Positions 8,157 through 19,992 of a stretch of 20,370 bases of DNA are shown piece after piece. Source of the DNA: a virus. The stretch's first letter is position 1. Each line of letters starts with the position of its first letter. The position numbers and the translations under genes are program-made. The DNA lies in IMG/VR virus record IMGVR_UViG_3300019776_000067, positions 1 to 20,370 of that record; one strand, written 5' to 3'. The notes beneath the pieces were generated by a model that did no database searches, was not told the DNA's origin, and worked only from the letters and a program-made list of their open reading frames with translations.

Positions 8157-8480
8157 ATGAAGCGGTTTGTTGATGAGGTTGATGGCGTCTCGGAATACAT
8201 TTCGTATGACGACGCGGCGGAAACCTTCACGATCCAACGCACGGCGGACCTTCAGGCTGTTGCCGACGATGTGGCCGCCAAGCATTCGCAGACGCTGGGC
8301 AAGACCGAACTTGGTTGGCATATCGGGAGCATCCCCGTTCCCCTGTTGCAGCAATATGCCCAGACGCGGGGTATTGCCAACTTCTGGGACCTTTGCACCC
8401 CGGCCTATGCCGATGAGTTGATGGCGCTTTGCCAGAACGCGGACTACCGCAAATTCAGCCCCACGGATGGTAAAGCATGA
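8157..8480 (+). CDS. Conserved-type phage protein between capsid and adaptor, 107 aa
   Basis: ATG 8157 follows the preceding TAA by one base; longer starts in this frame lie inside the previous gene and are unlikely. The 107-residue protein starts MKRFVDEVDGVSEYISYDDA and contains LGWHIGSIPVPLLQQYAQTRG (about 52-72), a WHIxSIP motif I recall from small proteins in other phages' head-tail regions. It then runs FWDLCTPAYADELMAL. Its function is not established to my knowledge. The stop overlaps the adaptor start in ATGA. Confidence 0.8.
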   Translation: MKRFVDEVDGVSEYISYDDAAETFTIQRTADLQAVADDVAAKHSQTLGKTELGWHIGSIPVPLLQQYAQTRGIANFWDLCTPAYADELMALCQNADYRKFSPTDGKA

Positions 8481-9088
8481 GCCTTTCCACCTACTCCGAC
8501 CTTGTGGCGGCAATCGGCAACTGGCTGAACCGTTCCGATCTGTCGGCCCGCATTCCTGAATTCATCGCGCTTGCGGAAGCGGAGTTCAACCGCCGCATTC
8601 GTACGATGGATATGGAACAGCGCGCTTACGCCACTGTGTCGAATGCGATTGCCCTGCCGTCCGACTTTAACGGTATGGCAGCAATCAAGGTGGACGAAAC
8701 CTCGGTTGCGTTCCTGCCCAAGAACGACTTCTTTCGCTTGGAACTCACAGGCCCTGCCGCGCCCAAGTTCTACACCATTGCGGATGGTCAAATCTTCCTC
8801 ACGCCCACGCCCACGTCGGGCAATGTGACGATTGACTATTACGCCAAGATTCCGGCCCTGACGGTATCAAATCCCACAAACTGGATGATGACCGAACACC
8901 CGGATTTATATCTGTTCTCATCGCTCGTTCAGGCGGAATTCTACGGGTGGAATGACGACCGGCTGCCTTTGATTAAAGCGCGTTGCGAAGAGATTATTGA
9001 TCAGATTGAAGCTCAGGAGGACAAGAAGTCCTACGGCTCGGCTCCGCTTGCTCCCCGCCTTCAGGCTGGCGCGTGGCTTAACACTTGA
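8477..9088 (+). CDS. Head-tail adaptor protein (SU10 adaptor / P22 gp4-like)
   Basis: The adaptor ring attaches beneath the portal and carries the tail nozzle. The 203-residue product has the features of the SU10-type adaptors: an N-terminal helix TYSDLVAAIGNWLNRSDLSA, then IPEFIALAEAEFNRRIRT (25-42), and the beta core (ALPSDFNGMAAIKVD). Next come ADGQIFLTPTPTSGNVTIDYY and the helical C-terminus HPDLYLFSSLVQAEFYGWNDD. Length and order (capsid, adaptor, nozzle) agree. ATG 8477 overlaps the previous stop in ATGA, and its own TGA overlaps the next start in TTGA. Confidence 0.88.
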   Translation: MSLSTYSDLVAAIGNWLNRSDLSARIPEFIALAEAEFNRRIRTMDMEQRAYATVSNAIALPSDFNGMAAIKVDETSVAFLPKNDFFRLELTGPAAPKFYTIADGQIFLTPTPTSGNVTIDYYAKIPALTVSNPTNWMMTEHPDLYLFSSLVQAEFYGWNDDRLPLIKARCEEIIDQIEAQEDKKSYGSAPLAPRLQAGAWLNT

Positions 9089-10515
9089 CCTACATCCCCT
9101 TCGGCCCCTTCCAGCCTGACAAGCCCTCCAGACTGAACGACGGCGCGTTGTCTGTTGCGGACGGGGTTTTGCCCCTTCCCGATGGATATCGCCCCTGTGG
9201 GCAGTTTGTGGACGATTTTAGCGCCCTTCCGATGGCCCCTAGAGGGGGTGCGACGTTCGTATCGACTTCGGGCATTGCCTCGATCATCGTGGGGACGCAG
9301 ACCAGCCTCTACAAAGCGGACGGCTCCAGCTTTAGCGAGATTGGCACGGGCTATTCCCTTCAGGGGTCCATGCGCTGGCGCTTTGCCCAGTTTGGCGATT
9401 TGGCGATTGCGACGAACTCCGCAGATGCGCCCGTCAAGATCAACCTGTCGGACTTCACCGTAAGCCCCTTGGGTGGCAATCCGCCGAAGTTTGAAAGCAT
9501 CGGCGTTGTAAAGGACTTCCTTGTCGGGACCGTCCGCAACGGGGCAATCAATGTTATTGGTTGGTCTGCCTTGAACAATGCCGAAAGCTGGACGGTCGGC
9601 ACGGGACAGGCGGACTATAACGAGTTCCCCGATGGCGGGCGGGTCAATGGGATCCTGTCGGGTGAATTCGGGGTTATCCTCCAGAGGAACGCCGTGCGCG
9701 TCATGAGTTACGTCGGTGGCAACTTCATCTTCTCGATTGACGTTGTATCGACCAATATCGGCTGCGTCTCTCCGCATACAGTCGCACAGGCCGGCAGGTT
9801 GGGCTTCTTTGTTGATGACAAGGGGCCTGCCATGTGGAACGGCTCTGACGTTCAGTTGATTGGCGATGAGGAATGGTCCCGCGCGTTCATGGCGGGCTAT
9901 GACATTAACGATTGGCCGGAATGCTCCACGGCGGTTGATCGAAAGCAGGGCATTGTCCTTTGGGCCATGCCGGATAAGATTTGGGGCTATAACTGGCGTT
10001 TGAACAAGGCGTTTACGCTGCCTTACATTTCCCCGATTATCTTTTCGGGCGTCTCCAAGGGCATCAACATTGATGAACTGGACGAGGTTGTCGGCGCGCC
10101 TGACAGCAACATTGACAGCCCCGGCCTCTTGTCTCTGGACGACCCCTCTTTCGGCGGCGGAAACCCACTTCTTTACGTGTTCTCCAATACCTATGCTTTG
10201 GGGCGGTTCTCAGGCACCCCGATGGCCGCGACATTCACCGGAACGGACCTCGAACTCATCCCCGGACGCCGCGCGAATGTCCGCTTTGTCCGCCCTGACA
10301 TTGACTGCGATGTTTTGACGGTCTCACTCAAGACCAAGCAGCGCCTTGTCGATAGCTACGGGACGGCTTCATCGACCGAATACACGGCAAGCGGCGACGT
10401 GCCTGTAAGGGCGTCGGGGCGGTATGTGCAGCCGACGATTTCCATTCCCGCAGGCGAGGTTTGGACCTTTGCCAAGGGTGTTGATTACATTTCGTCTCCA
10501 GGGGGTGGCCGATGA
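9085..10515 (+). CDS. Tail nozzle / tail accessory protein (P22 gp10-like)
   Basis: A 476-residue protein following the adaptor, corresponding to the nozzle or gp10-type packaged-DNA stabilisation protein that closes the portal channel. The N-terminus MTYIPFGPFQPDKPSRLNDGALSV is characteristic. The body is made of repeated beta-strands with internal Gly and aromatic residues suggesting a beta-propeller, for example GMRWRFAQFGDLAIATN-like stretches (about 94-110) and GRLGFFVDDKGPAMWNGSDV. The start is TTG 9085 in a TTGA overlap; the family motif begins right at this codon, which supports it. The stop overlaps the next gene in ATGA. Confidence 0.85.
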   Translation: MTYIPFGPFQPDKPSRLNDGALSVADGVLPLPDGYRPCGQFVDDFSALPMAPRGGATFVSTSGIASIIVGTQTSLYKADGSSFSEIGTGYSLQGSMRWRFAQFGDLAIATNSADAPVKINLSDFTVSPLGGNPPKFESIGVVKDFLVGTVRNGAINVIGWSALNNAESWTVGTGQADYNEFPDGGRVNGILSGEFGVILQRNAVRVMSYVGGNFIFSIDVVSTNIGCVSPHTVAQAGRLGFFVDDKGPAMWNGSDVQLIGDEEWSRAFMAGYDINDWPECSTAVDRKQGIVLWAMPDKIWGYNWRLNKAFTLPYISPIIFSGVSKGINIDELDEVVGAPDSNIDSPGLLSLDDPSFGGGNPLLYVFSNTYALGRFSGTPMAATFTGTDLELIPGRRANVRFVRPDIDCDVLTVSLKTKQRLVDSYGTASSTEYTASGDVPVRASGRYVQPTISIPAGEVWTFAKGVDYISSPGGGR

Positions 10516-11678
10516 GTTGGACGCTTAACCCGAAATACGTTCCCGCGAACGTCAAATGGGCAAGACAGGCACCGACGCATCTTAATGATACGATCTCAGC
10601 CCTTCAGGGGCGCCCTAGAGATGTTTCAACCCTCCGCCCGCGTCCGACTACCCTTTCGGAGCGTATCGCCTCTGCAATCGTCCCTGACGGGCGCAAATGG
10701 ACCGATATGCGCAACAAGGTGTCGGGTGCGGTTGATGCTCTGACGCCATTGGGGGCGGAGCAGCCGCTTCGTGACGCACGTTCGGCCTATCAGGGCGGTA
10801 ATAGGCTCACCGGCCTTGGCTTGGGCGCTCTCGCGGCTCTGGGGGCTATTCCAGGCGAAGGCATTGCAGAGCGCGGCCTGTCAAAAGCGCGTGGCATTTT
10901 CGGCAAGAAGGGCATCATTGCCTACCACGGAAGCCCGCATTCGTTCGACAAGTTTTCGCTTGATAAAATTGGCACAGGTGAAGGCGCGCAGGCTTACGGG
11001 CATGGGCTGTATTTTGCCGAGAAAGAGGGCGTAGCAAAATCCTATCGCGATGCGCTGGCGGGGGCGGGAAAGCTCATAGTTGACGGGCCGAGCGGCGTCA
11101 AAAAGCTTAATGCTGAAAAAATAGCGTCTCGCCTAGAGAAGAAATACGATCCTGAAATGGCAGACGAATTCCGCGAGTATCTGCGGATGATTGGCCAAGG
11201 CGACATGACAATTGCTGACATGAAGCGGGACTTTTTCGGCCAAGCTGCAAGATCGTCGTGGGGGCGCGATGTCTATAGCGCGATCCGTGATGCCAAGGGT
11301 GTTGAAAACACCGGCTCCATGTATCAAGTCCGCATCAACGCAGACCCAAACGACTTCCTTGATTGGGATGCGCCGGTCGCTAAGAATTTAGCGCCGGTTG
11401 CGCAAAAGCATCTTGGCGATATGGCCCAATACGCCAAAACTAACGGTCAATTGGTTCACAAGATTGGTACGACTGACGTTGTCCCCGACCTTAAAGCGGC
11501 TGGATACCCCGGCATCAAATACCTAGACCAAGGCTCACGCGGCGCAGGTGAAGGCTCACGCAACTACGTTGTCTTTGATGACGCTCTTATTGAGATTCTG
11601 AAGAAATACGGCATCGCGGTTCCTGCAATGGGCCTCGGTGTCGCGGGTATGTCACGCCAGCCGGAGGGTGGAATGTGA
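10512..11678 (+). CDS. Virion-region protein with ADP-ribosyltransferase-like domain
   Basis: A 388-residue protein in the tail block. Residues 1-130 lack a known domain and include a Gly/Leu-rich hydrophobic stretch (GLGLGALAALGAIPGEGIAE, 101-120) like that of internal virion proteins. From about 135 the sequence matches the ADP-ribosyltransferase family seen in phage polyvalent proteins: IAYHGSPHSFDKF (136-148), GHGLYFAEKEGVAKSY (163-178), YQVRINAD (271-278) and GIKYLDQ...RNYVVFDDALIEIL (334-363). His139 and Tyr167 fit the first two NAD-binding motifs. The third motif has Asn351 where many family members carry a Glu or Gln, so activity needs testing. Coupled by ATGA upstream and GTGA downstream. 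Likely role: modification of host or phage proteins after delivery (inference, by analogy to T4 Alt). Confidence 0.8.
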   Translation: MSWTLNPKYVPANVKWARQAPTHLNDTISALQGRPRDVSTLRPRPTTLSERIASAIVPDGRKWTDMRNKVSGAVDALTPLGAEQPLRDARSAYQGGNRLTGLGLGALAALGAIPGEGIAERGLSKARGIFGKKGIIAYHGSPHSFDKFSLDKIGTGEGAQAYGHGLYFAEKEGVAKSYRDALAGAGKLIVDGPSGVKKLNAEKIASRLEKKYDPEMADEFREYLRMIGQGDMTIADMKRDFFGQAARSSWGRDVYSAIRDAKGVENTGSMYQVRINADPNDFLDWDAPVAKNLAPVAQKHLGDMAQYAKTNGQLVHKIGTTDVVPDLKAAGYPGIKYLDQGSRGAGEGSRNYVVFDDALIEILKKYGIAVPAMGLGVAGMSRQPEGGM

Positions 11679-12145
11679 CGACCGCGCTGTATGTCTACAT
11701 TTGCACCAAGACCACGGCAGATGTTGTCATTCCCCGCTATGCAAGGACACAAGAGGACTACAACCGCCGCGTATCGGGTGGATTTCAGGCTATTGCAGGG
11801 GGGCATACACGCGCGGGAGATTTGCTCCTGCGTCCGACAACGGCGGCGGTGTCCAACCATCTTCTATGCGACGGTTCCACGCTGAACATTACGCAGTTCC
11901 CGGACCTTTACGACGCCATCGGAACGACCTTCGGCGGGGATGGGGTTACTACCTTCAAGCTGCCTGACTACGGCGCGCAGGCGCTCACCGTTCCGGGCAT
12001 TAGCGTTACACAGACGGTCGATCCTTCCGGCACGGTATCCACGGGCGGCACGGTTACAACGCCTTCGGGCAGTGGCCAGACGGGCGGCTCTACGGGCGGC
12101 AACGTTGTATCGGGTGGTCGCGCGCCTCGGAGGCAATTGGATTGA
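11675..12145 (+). CDS. Phage tail collar domain protein
   Basis: A 156-residue protein starting at GTG 11675 in a GTGA overlap. The central segment NHLLCDGSTLNITQFPDLYD...GTTFGGDGVTTFKLPDYG (about 61-100) is the tail collar domain, with its CDGS, PDLYxAIGTTFG and TTFKLPD signatures. The C-terminal quarter is a low-complexity Gly/Thr/Ser run (TVSTGGTVTTPSGSG) ending in a basic RAPRRQLD. The protein is short for a fibre and may be a collar or tail-tip piece to which the spike attaches. Unlike most collar proteins it has no long C-terminal fibre. Confidence 0.88.
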   Translation: MTTALYVYICTKTTADVVIPRYARTQEDYNRRVSGGFQAIAGGHTRAGDLLLRPTTAAVSNHLLCDGSTLNITQFPDLYDAIGTTFGGDGVTTFKLPDYGAQALTVPGISVTQTVDPSGTVSTGGTVTTPSGSGQTGGSTGGNVVSGGRAPRRQLD

Positions 12146-12516
12146 TCCCGTTTCAGGCAAGGAGCGAATTCCTTCGCTTCCGTGACCAGTTTCTGGAGGC
12201 CATCGACCCGCGATATTACTGCATCTATTGGCTGGAAAACCGCATCCTGAACGGGTCTGCGCATATCCTTTCAAATGACGATGCGGCGATCATCTACGAA
12301 GTCCGCACCTACCCCACGGGGGCCAAGGAACTGCACGGGCTTCTCGCTGCGGGAAACATGGAAAGCATTGTCCAGGAGTTGATCCCGGCTGCGGAGCAAA
12401 TCGCGCGGGATTGGGGCTGTATTTCAGCCTGCATCGAAAGCCGTCCGGGATGGGCAAAGGCGCTCAAGCCCTACGGATATGAAGTTCATCAAGTGGCAAT
12501 AAAGAAAGAGCTTTAA
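12142..12516 (+). CDS. GNAT-like (acetyltransferase-fold) phage protein, 124 aa
   Basis: TTG 12142 overlaps the TGA of the collar gene in TTGA. The 124 residues resemble the small GNAT-like proteins often found in phage tail regions: YCIYWLENRILNGSAHILSNDDAAIIYEVRTYPTG, then LHGLLAAGNMESIVQEL (65-81), a Cys-containing strand WGCISACIESRPGWAKALKPYGY (91-113) and a short tail. The acetyl-CoA loop (R/QxxGxG/A) is not visible, so enzymatic activity is doubtful and it may be a structural relative. No further partner is apparent. Assignment is by recalled pattern only. Confidence 0.6.
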   Translation: MIPFQARSEFLRFRDQFLEAIDPRYYCIYWLENRILNGSAHILSNDDAAIIYEVRTYPTGAKELHGLLAAGNMESIVQELIPAAEQIARDWGCISACIESRPGWAKALKPYGYEVHQVAIKKEL

Positions 12517-12520
12517 CTTG

Positions 12521-12542
12521 CCGTGAATCACGGTTTGTTCTG
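12521..12542 (+). terminator. Weak terminator-like hairpin before the HNH gene
   Basis: CCGTG (12521-12525), loop AAT, CACGG (12529-12533), followed by TTTGTTCTGT. A 5-bp stem with a T-rich tail just after the GNAT-like gene. It may reduce read-through or be part of the HNH leader. Confidence 0.35.
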
Positions 12543-12550
12543 TAAAATGC

Positions 12551-12585
12551 GGGCCACGAAGGTGCTGGTAACACCAACGCGGCCC
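12551..12585 (+). ncRNA. Structured RNA element in the HNH leader
   Basis: GGGCC (12551-12555) pairs with GGCCC (12581-12585), CG (12557-58) with CG (12578-79), and GGTG (12561-12564) with CACC (12572-12575). This leaves a 1x1 A/C mismatch, a symmetric AA/AA internal loop, and a 7-base CTGGTAA loop, giving an 11-bp hairpin. The sequence matches my recollection of leaders upstream of other free-standing phage HNH genes, but I cannot name an Rfam family. It may regulate expression or mark the boundary of a mobile unit. Confidence 0.5.
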
Positions 12586-12594
12586 TAACCAAAA

Positions 12595-12611
12595 CGAACT
12601 ACGGAGGTTCG
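12595..12611 (+). promoter_or_regulatory. Ribosome-site hairpin of the HNH gene
   Basis: CGAAC (12595-12599) pairs with GTTCG (12607-12611) around TACGGAG. The Shine-Dalgarno GGAGG (12603-12607) lies almost wholly in the loop and reaches into the stem, five bases before ATG 12613. The hairpin could hold back translation of the nuclease, as is known for T4 homing endonuclease genes, though here the exposure in the loop might equally favour initiation. Confidence 0.45.
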
Positions 12612-12612
12612 C

Positions 12613-13098
12613 ATGGGTGACGTTGTTATACCCCATATCACTGATAAAATGCACGCCCGTTTTTGGTCAAAAGTTGACCGGCGCGGCGCGGATGAATGCT
12701 GGCCTTGGACTGCCTCAATTAATACGGGCGGGTATGGTCAATTTATCATCAAAGCTGGGCTAATTCGTAGGGCGCATCAAATGGCGCTCTACCTGTCCGG
12801 CAATCCAAGAATAGGCGACCTTCACGCGCTTCATAGCTGCGACAACAGGGCTTGCTGCAATCCCGCTCATTTGCGGTGGGGAACGATAGCAGAAAACGCT
12901 TGGGATAAATCACAGCGCGGGCGGTGCCGTGACACTTCAGGCGAACGCAACGCTAACCACAAGTTGACTGAAGCAGACGTGAGGCAAATCCGCGAGACGG
13001 ATGGAACGCATCGGGCATTGGCGGCGGCTTACGGGGTCGCTCACACAGTAATTGGACAGATTAAGCGCGGCGAGAAATGGCGCTGCATATTGCCATAG
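12613..13098 (+). CDS. Free-standing HNH (homing-type) endonuclease
   Basis: A 161-residue protein that cuts DNA, probably to spread itself into phages lacking it. The N-terminal part (FWSKVDRRGADECWPWTASIN, 17-37) is typical of HNH_3 homing nucleases. The HNH core is HALHSCDNRACCNPAHLRWGT (71-91), with His74, Asn78, His86 and Cys76/Cys81/Cys82, consistent with zinc-stabilised HNH motifs. RGRCRD (102-107) follows. The C-terminus is a DNA-binding helix-turn-helix: KLTEADVRQIRETDG...ALAAAYGVAHTVIGQIKRGEKW (117-156). It interrupts an otherwise virion-gene block, with a 96-base structured leader, so it looks inserted. It is in the same frame as the next gene, with only TAG 13096-13098 between them. 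Confidence 0.93.
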   Translation: MGDVVIPHITDKMHARFWSKVDRRGADECWPWTASINTGGYGQFIIKAGLIRRAHQMALYLSGNPRIGDLHALHSCDNRACCNPAHLRWGTIAENAWDKSQRGRCRDTSGERNANHKLTEADVRQIRETDGTHRALAAAYGVAHTVIGQIKRGEKWRCILP

Positions 13099-13746: not shown

Positions 13747-14403
13747 ATGGGCATCATTGGAGGCAAGAAATACGACGGCAGCGCAATCCGCAACGCGGTC
13801 TTGCCGCAGCCTGAAACGCTTTCATTTATGAATGGGCCTGATTTGTTGGGCAATCCGACAAGCGGGCAAAGCTACGTCGATCCACGCGGGCCGATGCAAT
13901 ACACGCCCAAGCCCACGTTTCTGAACAGGCTCGGCAAGTTTGCGGAAGGCGTATCAAACGATCTTTTGCATATGCGCGGGGTCCAAAACACCGGCCTGGA
14001 CCAGCGCCGCGCAATGGAAATGTATAAGCAGCAGCAGGCCGACACGCTTGCGCAGTATGAGGCGCAACAGCGGATTGCAGCGCAGTATCGGAAGCCGGAA
14101 AAGACTGAGTTTGAACGTGCGCTTGACGCCGCAAACTTTGATCCCGACACGCGCCAGAAAATGCTGCGTGATTACGTAACAAGCCGCGCCAATCCCATGA
14201 TCCCGATGCAGGGCATGGACGAGTCAGGCAACCGCACCGTCACTTTTGTTCCGCGCAACGGGGCGCAGGCAACGCAGCCACACCCGGAAGCGGTCAAGGC
14301 GCTCCTGAATGGTGAAGGCACTGACGCTCAGTTTGACGAGATTTACGGTCCCGGTGCGGCTGCAAGGGTGCGAGGTGCTGGCTCCGGCCAGCTTCCCTTT
14401 TGA
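13747..14403 (+). CDS. Putative internal virion protein, 218 aa
   Basis: ATG 13747 follows GGGAGG (13734-13739). The product starts MGIIGGKKYDGSAIRNAVLPQ and has a linker rich in Pro/Gly/Asn, then a hydrophilic helical middle (GLDQRRAMEMYKQQQADTLAQYEAQQ, about 79-104, shown in parts) and a C-terminus containing PHPEAVKALLNGEGTDAQFDEIYG. No enzyme motif is visible. Its place between two ejection-type proteins and its low-hydrophobicity coiled-coil character suggest it joins the internal virion complex. The last 29 bases overlap the peptidase gene in another frame. Confidence 0.75.
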   Translation: MGIIGGKKYDGSAIRNAVLPQPETLSFMNGPDLLGNPTSGQSYVDPRGPMQYTPKPTFLNRLGKFAEGVSNDLLHMRGVQNTGLDQRRAMEMYKQQQADTLAQYEAQQRIAAQYRKPEKTEFERALDAANFDPDTRQKMLRDYVTSRANPMIPMQGMDESGNRTVTFVPRNGAQATQPHPEAVKALLNGEGTDAQFDEIYGPGAAARVRGAGSGQLPF

Positions 14404-14674
14404 GATTCCGCAGACACTTCAAAACGGCGTTATGACGAGCGGACGCCGGACACCTGAAGGCAATGCGGCAGTTGGGGGCGTTCCCAATTCCTGGCACCTC
14501 ACAGGGGACGCGGTGGATTACTCCGGTCCCAATCTTGGGGCGTTGCTTGAGGAAGCGCGCAGCAAGTTCCCCGGCGCGAAATCATTCATTCACAAGGGTA
14601 ACCACGTTCACGTTCAACAGCGTGGCCTGAACGCCCCGTATTTTGGCAAGCGCGGCACCATCGGTCAGAGGTAA
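14375..14674 (+). CDS. Mini M15-type peptidase (D,D-carboxypeptidase-like), 99 aa
   Basis: GTG 14375 stands six bases behind AAGGG (14364-14368) and gives a 99-residue protein. It contains the M15 zinc-peptidase signatures: SGRRTPEGN (22-30), a S-x-H-x-x-G-D-A-V-D site SWHLTGDAVDYSG (39-51, His41 and Asp48 as ligands), and HVHV (77-80, His77/His79). This is the fold of peptidoglycan cross-link hydrolases. At 99 residues it is only the core domain. Lying among the ejection proteins, it probably opens peptidoglycan locally during DNA entry rather than lysing the cell. An ATG at 14309 in the same frame would add 22 residues inside the preceding gene. Confidence 0.82.
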   Translation: MLAPASFPFEIPQTLQNGVMTSGRRTPEGNAAVGGVPNSWHLTGDAVDYSGPNLGALLEEARSKFPGAKSFIHKGNHVHVQQRGLNAPYFGKRGTIGQR

Positions 14675-19047: not shown

Positions 19048-19992
19048 GTGGCATTAACCGACGCGGAGTTCATTCAGGCATGGGGTCGCTACCAGTCGCC
19101 TGTTAAGGTTGCCGAAGCTACCGGCATAACTGTCCGAAACGTTTATCGACGCAGAGACAGCCTTGTTAAAAAGGGCTGGGATTTGCCGACTGAGGGCGGA
19201 ACCACATACAAGCCTCAGATGGGGTGGACCTATCCGCGCCAACGTGATTTGGAGATGGTCAACGGTTCTATCGTTGTTTCATCCGATCACCACTACTGGC
19301 CTGATATGGTGACGGTTGCCCATCGGGCGCTTGTCGAGGTGGTTGGCGAGGTAAAGCCTCAAATCAAGATATGGAACGGGGATATATTCGACGGGGCTTC
19401 TGTCTCGCGTCACGATCCGTTTGGTTGGGCAAAGTTGCCAACGGTCCAAGAAGAATTGGACGCTTGCAAGGCGCGGCTCTCGGAAGTTCGGGACGCTGCG
19501 GACTGTAAGCATTACTGGAATCTCGGCAACCACTGCGTTCGGTTTGAGCGGACGCTAAAGGCGAATGCGGGTCAGTTTGAAGGATTGCAGATGTTCCGCT
19601 TGGAGCATCATTTTCCCTTTGCTGAGTTTCAGTGGTCCACGGCGGTGAACTGGCAAGCCAAGCGGCCTGTGATGATTAAGCATCGTTTAGCCGGTGGCGT
19701 TCACGCGGGCTATAATAACACCATGAAGGGCGGCGTCACGATGGTGACGGGCCATACCCATATCCTAGAGGCCAAGCCGTTCTGTGACTACAACGGGCGG
19801 CGCTGGGGCATTCAGACAGGCACGATCAGCGACCTTCACGGCCCGCAGATGGAATACGCTGAGAATAGCCCCTCGCAGGCCTGTAGCGGGTTCGTTGTCC
19901 TGACATGGAATGACGGCGAATTGCTCCCGCCTGAAATGTGCGAGGTCATAGACGGAAAGGCTTACTTCCGTGGACGGGTGGTGGCGAGATGA
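19048..19992 (+). CDS. HTH-containing calcineurin-type metallophosphoesterase
   Basis: Starts at GTG 19048 with AGG at 19039-19041. The 314 residues begin with a helix-turn-helix-like segment (DAEFIQAWGRYQSPVKVAEATGITVRNVYRRRDSL, about 5-39, shown to note its extent). The rest is a calcineurin-type phosphoesterase with its ordered metal-binding motifs: SDHHYWP (79-85), NGDIFDG (110-116), LGNH (159-162), VHAG (218-221) and TGHTHI (234-239). Metal ligands would be Asp80, His82, Asp112, Asn161, His219, His236 and His238. The HTH joined to a phosphoesterase suggests a nucleic-acid-linked function. Substrate is unknown. The stop overlaps the next start in ATGA. Confidence 0.85.
   Translation: MALTDAEFIQAWGRYQSPVKVAEATGITVRNVYRRRDSLVKKGWDLPTEGGTTYKPQMGWTYPRQRDLEMVNGSIVVSSDHHYWPDMVTVAHRALVEVVGEVKPQIKIWNGDIFDGASVSRHDPFGWAKLPTVQEELDACKARLSEVRDAADCKHYWNLGNHCVRFERTLKANAGQFEGLQMFRLEHHFPFAEFQWSTAVNWQAKRPVMIKHRLAGGVHAGYNNTMKGGVTMVTGHTHILEAKPFCDYNGRRWGIQTGTISDLHGPQMEYAENSPSQACSGFVVLTWNDGELLPPEMCEVIDGKAYFRGRVVAR

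What the first reader, a model, noticed from the sequence alone, without database searches (positions are those of the whole stretch)
10512..11678. ADP-ribosyltransferase-like protein inside the tail gene block
YHGSPH, GHGLYF and RNYVVFDD motifs fit the ART family known from phage polyvalent proteins. It is coupled to the nozzle gene upstream and the collar gene downstream, so it is probably made with virion proteins and may be packaged. T4 Alt is a precedent for virion-delivered ART. Residues 1-130 have no recognised domain and could be the packaging or delivery region. The third motif carries Asn where many ARTs use Glu or Gln, so activity is uncertain.
Basis: partly seen in the sequence, partly recalled or inferred. 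Interest (0 to 1): 0.6.

Follow-up and report, generated by a model that had tools for sequence, protein, structure and literature searches.

The report
Podovirus ADP-ribosyltransferase in tail-gene block
A short-tailed phage carries, slotted exactly between two tail genes, a gene for an enzyme-like protein of the ADP-ribosyltransferase family, which is probably built into the virus particle and injected to modify host molecules; it is a new member of a family already predicted to do this, not a new kind of system.

Summary
The ORF at 10512-11678 (388 aa) is real. Residues ~132-368 are an ADP-ribosyltransferase (ART) domain of the phage 'polyvalent protein' type. Pfam ART-PolyVal hits it at E=3e-6 (sub-threshold). 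33 of 35 aligned members, this one included, hit the same model. A predicted model superposes on tankyrase/PARP and diphtheria toxin with His139 on the catalytic His, and best of all on a domain of the cyanophage A4 pre-ejectosome. His139, Tyr167, Tyr178, Asn351 and Asp357 are invariant in 34/34 relatives, so the Asn in motif III is a subfamily feature, not decay. The gene shares 4-bp overlaps with the nozzle and collar genes. A close relative (L052) has nozzle-collar joined by the same kind of overlap and no ART, so this is a clean accessory insertion. Relatives carry it beside portal, adaptor, nozzle or terminase genes, or fused inside 1,100-3,100-aa proteins, some placed among internal virion proteins. 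Best reading: late-made, virion-packaged, ejected ART cargo that modifies host macromolecules. ART fold: near certain; catalysis: likely; packaging: inferred; target: unknown. T4 Alt is a functional analogue only (different active-site clade). Residues 1-130 show no relatives in the loci collected. New member of a known kind.

The parts
10512..11678 (+). 388-aa ADP-ribosyltransferase-like protein, standalone gene
10512..10901 (+). N-terminal residues 1-130, helical and low-confidence in the model, no relatives found in the loci collected
10806..10865 (+). Gly/Ala-rich hydrophobic segment (residues 99-118, LTGLGLGALAALGAIPGEGI) before the ART domain; comparable segments (score 1.2 or more) in 12 of 26 standalone members
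   Evidence: meaning inferred only
10905..11615 (+). ART domain, residues 132-368, six core strands (135-141, 166-169, 269-275, 334-338, 350-354, 360-366)
10923..10940 (+). motif I YHGSPH, His139 invariant (PARP/diphtheria-type HGS)
10998..11045 (+). motif II GHGLYFA with Tyr167 and second invariant Tyr178 eleven residues later
11559..11582 (+). motif III RNYVVFDD, Asn351 at the PARP Glu position, Asp357 invariant
9085..10515 (+). nozzle / tail stabilisation protein (P22 gp10-like), upstream partner with 4-bp overlap
   Evidence: (phrog_3287 E=9e-51)
11675..12145 (+). tail collar-domain protein, downstream partner with 4-bp overlap
   Evidence: (PF07484 E=2e-17)

Best explanation
The protein is a standalone ART of the phage polyvalent-protein family (H-Y class, with an invariant Asn in motif III) that the phage carries as accessory cargo. 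It is translated from the late message together with the nozzle and collar proteins, is packaged in the particle (most likely with the ejection proteins), enters the cell at the start of infection with the DNA, and transfers ADP-ribose from NAD+ to a host protein or other macromolecule to favour the infection. Shown here: the gene, the domain family, the modelled fold with catalytic-site register, conservation of the putative active site, and clean insertion in a structural operon. Inferred: late expression, packaging, ejection, catalysis. Unknown: the target.
For: ART domain: PF18760 E=2.9e-6, 33 of 35 aligned members hit the same model; AlphaFold models superpose on tankyrase/PARP, diphtheria toxin and RES toxins (full model Z 7.6-8.5 in the listed rows; domain model Z 7.5-8.4), and the aligned end-points put His139 on TNKS2 His1031 and Asn351 on Glu1138; 28 viral predicted structures at E<=1e-3, several named ART-PolyVal-like. 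Putative active site kept: H139, Y167, N351, D357 in 34/34, Y178 invariant. Cargo: L052 has nozzle-collar-GNAT without ART at the same kind of 4-bp junction; relatives place the gene next to portal, adaptor, nozzle or terminase genes; phiGT1 has it between portal and scaffold; ART and HNH genes have the lowest GC3 of the 16 genes compared. Delivery: the best structural match is a domain of the cyanophage A4 pre-ejectosome, whose sequence there reads LYHGT..GSGTYFS..TLVINPD; the domain is fused in 1,100-3,100-aa proteins, in vir555 and LS06 next to an annotated internal virion protein, and matches the C-terminus of PHROG 873, a head-category 1,277-position family. Literature predicts packaging of polyvalent ARTs (PMC5512222, PMC9503650).
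Against: No virion proteomics for this phage; phiGT1 virion mass-spectrometry results exist (PMC10386132) but the table could not be opened. Foldseek alone gave no match at E<=1e-3 in the PDB; Z of 8-10 is moderate. The A4 relationship is structural and motif-level; profile comparison was not significant. Residues 1-130 show no conserved packaging signal. Asn instead of Glu could lower or change the activity. About half of the immediate neighbours in relatives could not be identified.
Confidence: 0.58

Rival explanations
1. Active ART made late but not packaged: it acts in the producing cell, for example on host or phage proteins late in infection, or against superinfecting phages or NAD-based defences, as T4 ModA/ModB act after synthesis.
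For: Late structural operon context alone does not prove packaging; no conserved packaging region; some members of the wider ART family sit outside structural blocks (Dickeya JA33, Vi01, Jenst).
Against: Recurrent placement among portal, adaptor, nozzle and terminase genes in unrelated contigs and fusion into large proteins located beside internal virion proteins; ART-like domain present in the solved A4 pre-ejectosome.
Confidence: 0.22
2. A catalytically dead ART fold reused as a small head-tail accessory or scaffold protein; the Asn in motif III reflects loss of activity.
For: H-Y-N is outside the H-Y-[EDQ] description (PMC7955679); structural gene context.
Against: His139, Tyr167, Tyr178, Asn351 and Asp357 are invariant while the rest of the domain has diverged to 28-54% identity, unlike a decaying site; mono-PARPs with Ile/Leu/Tyr at that position are listed as mono-ARTs; the gene is dispensable for the tail plan, being absent from L052.
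Confidence: 0.12
3. NAD+ glycohydrolase rather than transferase: an injected or late NAD+-consuming enzyme that alters host NAD+ pools.
For: Structural neighbours include the RES-type toxins MbcT and NatT among middling hits; the Macro gene in the same slot of Mae-JY35 shows that an ADP-ribose-related gene can settle there.
Against: The best-matching enzymes are PARPs and diphtheria toxin, which are transferases; an NAD+ drain would seem costly to a lytic phage.
Confidence: 0.06

Closest known systems
ART-PolyVal (Pfam PF18760; polyvalent-protein ARTs of Iyer et al. 2017, PMC5512222)
   Same: Motifs I and II, modelled fold, phage origin; this family is what the Pfam profile hits and what fused relatives carry.
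   Different: Standalone, no partner effector domain; only the N-terminal third of the profile matches, sub-threshold; motif III residue is an invariant Asn where the paper describes Asp for the family.
phiGT1_5 of Sulfitobacter phage phiGT1 (QLB38217.1)
   Same: Same size (387 aa), same domain at the C-terminal side (39% identity over residues 132-383), podovirus structural block.
   Different: Lies between portal and scaffold genes, not between nozzle and collar; N-terminal region not alignable.
Cyanophage A4 (A-4L) ejectosome protein A4L_27, PDB 9k3a chain B
   Same: ART-like domain (residues ~1418-1605) with YHGT / GSGTYF motifs; best structural match; physically in a podovirus particle. 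That A-4L is the phage of entry 9k3a is inferred from the matching residue numbers and motifs.
   Different: 1,717-aa ejection protein; sequence similarity not significant; Thr at the motif III position.
T4 Alt
   Same: Proposed role: virion-delivered ART acting at the start of infection.
   Different: R-S-E (Alt/VIP2) clade, not H-Y; myovirus; so analogue, not relative in the narrow sense (PMC5512222).

Membership tests
ART superfamily, H-Y clade | split-sheet ART fold | tested here: met
   Models superpose on tankyrase, diphtheria toxin and A4 ejectosome ART-like domain, Z 7.5-10; model confidence moderate, pLDDT 77 for the domain
ART superfamily, H-Y clade | His in strand 1 (HxS/T) and Tyr in strand 2 | tested here: met
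   His139 in HGS, Tyr167 in YFA, both invariant
ART superfamily, H-Y clade | Glu, Asp or Gln in motif III | tested here: not met
   Asn351, invariant in 34/34 relatives; a conserved variant (H-Y-N), so placed beside the H-Y-[EDQ] clade rather than squarely inside its definition
ART superfamily, H-Y clade | NAD+-dependent ADP-ribosyl transfer | not testable with these tools
   needs assay
ART-PolyVal PF18760 | score above Pfam gathering threshold | tested here: not met
   28.5 bits against 31.2; several relatives exceed it, for example L037 57.7 and L013 50.9 bits
Polyvalent protein | two or more effector domains in one polypeptide | tested here: not met
   Single ART domain in 388 aa; relatives with the fused form exist
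T4 Alt / VIP2 ARTs | R-S-E active site | tested here: not met
   Equivalent positions are His, Tyr, Asn
Virion-packaged, ejected protein | present in purified virions | not tested
Virion-packaged, ejected protein | encoded within the virion structural operon | tested here: met
   4-bp overlaps with nozzle and collar genes

The most novel reading that the evidence does not exclude
A subfamily of free-standing H-Y-N ARTs travels as a separate, swappable cargo gene among the portal-adaptor-nozzle genes of many podoviruses and is ejected with the DNA, so that ejectosome-borne and free ARTs are two forms of the same early host-takeover device; the same slot can hold an ADP-ribose-handling Macro gene in another phage.
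Probability: 0.4. Interest if true: 0.55.

Novelty: new member of a known kind. Interest (0 to 1): 0.4.

Why it matters
Virion-delivered ARTs are well documented for T4 and mainly predicted elsewhere; the 2022 survey found ARTs in only about 3% of podoviruses (PMC9503650). A standalone, conserved ART in podovirus neck-gene blocks, with an isolated relative (phiGT1) whose virion proteome has been measured, gives a small and tractable system in which to test whether short-tailed phages inject ADP-ribosylating enzymes and what they modify.

Tried and rejected
phmmer and profile search of PDB sequences gave no ART relative; Foldseek alone against the PDB was not significant, so the fold case rests on VIA-align, motifs and profiles. 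Sequence profile of the family against A4L proteins not significant. NCBIfam: nothing. The genome collection gave only two loci with weak relatives; plasmid-collection hits are mostly LPD23/polyvalent-type proteins. Promoter and terminator scan of 8400-12700 found no more sites than shuffles. The idea that residues 1-130 are a conserved delivery module was tested against the collected loci and dropped. A family tree shows free and fused forms clustered but not cleanly separated (three label changes; deep branches poorly supported), so the direction of change is undecided. Papers on the A4 ejectosome are not in the library. The phiGT1 paper does not discuss gene 5 by name in its text.

Full report
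What is there. The window is a 20.4-kb fragment held as a virus record with a short-tailed-phage structural block: terminase, portal (SU10_portal, E=3e-186), scaffold, major head protein, adaptor, nozzle, then the ORF in question, a collar-domain protein, ejection-type proteins and a pectate-lyase-like spike. ORF 10512-11678 encodes 388 aa. Its start codon overlaps the nozzle stop by 4 bases (ATGA) and its stop overlaps the collar start (GTGA). No promoter or terminator signal beyond chance separates the genes.

What the domain is. Pfam's ART-PolyVal model matches residues 136-182 at E=2.9e-6 but below its curated cut-off. The C-terminal half is matched by the C-terminus of PHROG 873, a 1,277-position family filed under head and packaging. 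A scan of IMG/VR found 38 relatives (29-55% identity in the best segment), and 33 of the 35 rows of the family alignment match ART-PolyVal. In the alignment the putative active site is fixed: His139, Glu157, Gly165, Tyr167, Arg343, Asn351 and Asp357 in 34 of 34 other rows, and Tyr178 too. HGS, YFA and a second Tyr are PARP hallmarks (PMC7955679); that PARP1 has the same 11-residue spacing between its two tyrosines is from my own knowledge. The domain model (pLDDT 77) has the six ART strands. Its best structural match is residues 1418-1605 of a cyanophage A4 pre-ejectosome chain (Z 9.1, 135 residues, 4.2 A; Z 10.2 with the full-length model), followed by tankyrase 2 (Z 8.4) and diphtheria toxin (Z 8.1). 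The aligned end-points carry His139 onto TNKS2 His1031 and Asn351 onto Glu1138, the known catalytic residues (numbering from established knowledge; the register between the end-points is inferred). In the A4 protein the matching stretch reads LYHGT...GSGTYFS...TLVINPD, so the match has motif support although the profile comparison is not significant.

The Asn. Motif III has Asn where the H-Y clade is described as Glu/Asp/Gln, and Iyer et al. describe Asp for the polyvalent ARTs. Because Asn is invariant in the family it is a subfamily trait and not a sign of decay. Among human PARPs, Ile, Leu or Tyr at this place goes with mono-ADP-ribosylation. Wider ART-PolyVal members vary there (Glu in Pseudomonas phage F116, Asn in vir555). 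Which residue does the job, Asn351 or the invariant Asp357, cannot be settled here.

Cargo gene. L052, whose nozzle is 46% identical, has the order adaptor, nozzle, collar, GNAT with the nozzle and collar joined by the same kind of 4-base overlap and no ART. The gene is therefore a clean accessory insertion between nozzle and collar here. In Microcystis phage Mae-JY35 the gene directly after the nozzle is a Macro (ADP-ribose-binding) protein (PF01661 E=7e-15). In relatives the ART gene sits next to the portal (L005, L011, L019, L022, L035; phiGT1 one gene away), the adaptor (L024, L026), the nozzle or a nozzle-related family (L024, L012, L021) or the large terminase (L027). About half of the flanking genes were not identifiable. 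Of the 16 window genes compared, ART and HNH have the lowest third-position GC (0.58 and 0.55), in keeping with recent arrival.

Delivery. In about a third of the loci the same domain lies inside proteins of roughly 1,100-3,100 aa, in two cases beside an annotated internal virion protein (vir555, LS06). One Roseovarius podovirus has an ART on its virion RNA polymerase (PMC5512222). Together with the A4 structure this makes packaging and ejection the most economical reading. The N-terminal 130 residues have no relatives in the loci collected, so they give no support to a shared packaging signal. Many free-standing members have short Gly/Ala-rich hydrophobic stretches before and after the domain; a role in membrane contact is a guess.

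Known or new. The family, its likely role and its habit of sitting near head genes are published predictions (PMC5512222, PMC9503650). This protein is a new, standalone member with a fixed H-Y-N site. It is not a polyvalent protein in the strict sense and is not of the T4 Alt clade. Interest is moderate: the exact insertion, the swap slot and the ejectosome precedent make a testable case, but nothing here departs from the known kind.

Noticed in passing
L058 (Microcystis phage Mae-JY35) 5458-6015: Macro-domain gene directly after the nozzle gene, in the same slot where the window has the ART; suggests a site for ADP-ribose-related cargo.
   Followed up: partly
window 14309-14674: Short ORF with a Peptidase M15 domain (PF08291 E=1e-8) between ejection-type genes; its true start is probably later because it overlaps the upstream ORF; possibly a virion-associated murein peptidase.
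   Followed up: no
window 12613-13098: HNH endonuclease gene (PF13392, sub-threshold) between the GNAT-like gene and the internal virion protein genes, lowest GC3 of the genes compared; probably a mobile insertion.
   Followed up: no
window 12142-12516: Small protein in the place of the GNAT-like 'head assembly' gene of phiGT1 (gp16), conserved in L052 at 45% identity; no Pfam hit by itself.
   Followed up: no
window 19048-19992: Calcineurin-like phosphoesterase (PF00149 E=1.5e-4) downstream of the spike gene.
   Followed up: no
L013 3974-7357: Two ART domains in tandem in one 1,127-aa protein; L028 also has two.
   Followed up: partly
L012 8990-10579 and L021 6037-7668: PHROG 5107, labelled amidase/lysis, lies directly beside ART genes and weakly matches the nozzle family phrog_3287 or another virion structural family; the label may be wrong.
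   Followed up: no
L044 A4L_27 residues ~1418-1605: ART-like domain inside the cyanophage A-4L ejectosome protein, annotated only as tail protein and without a Pfam ART hit.
   Followed up: partly
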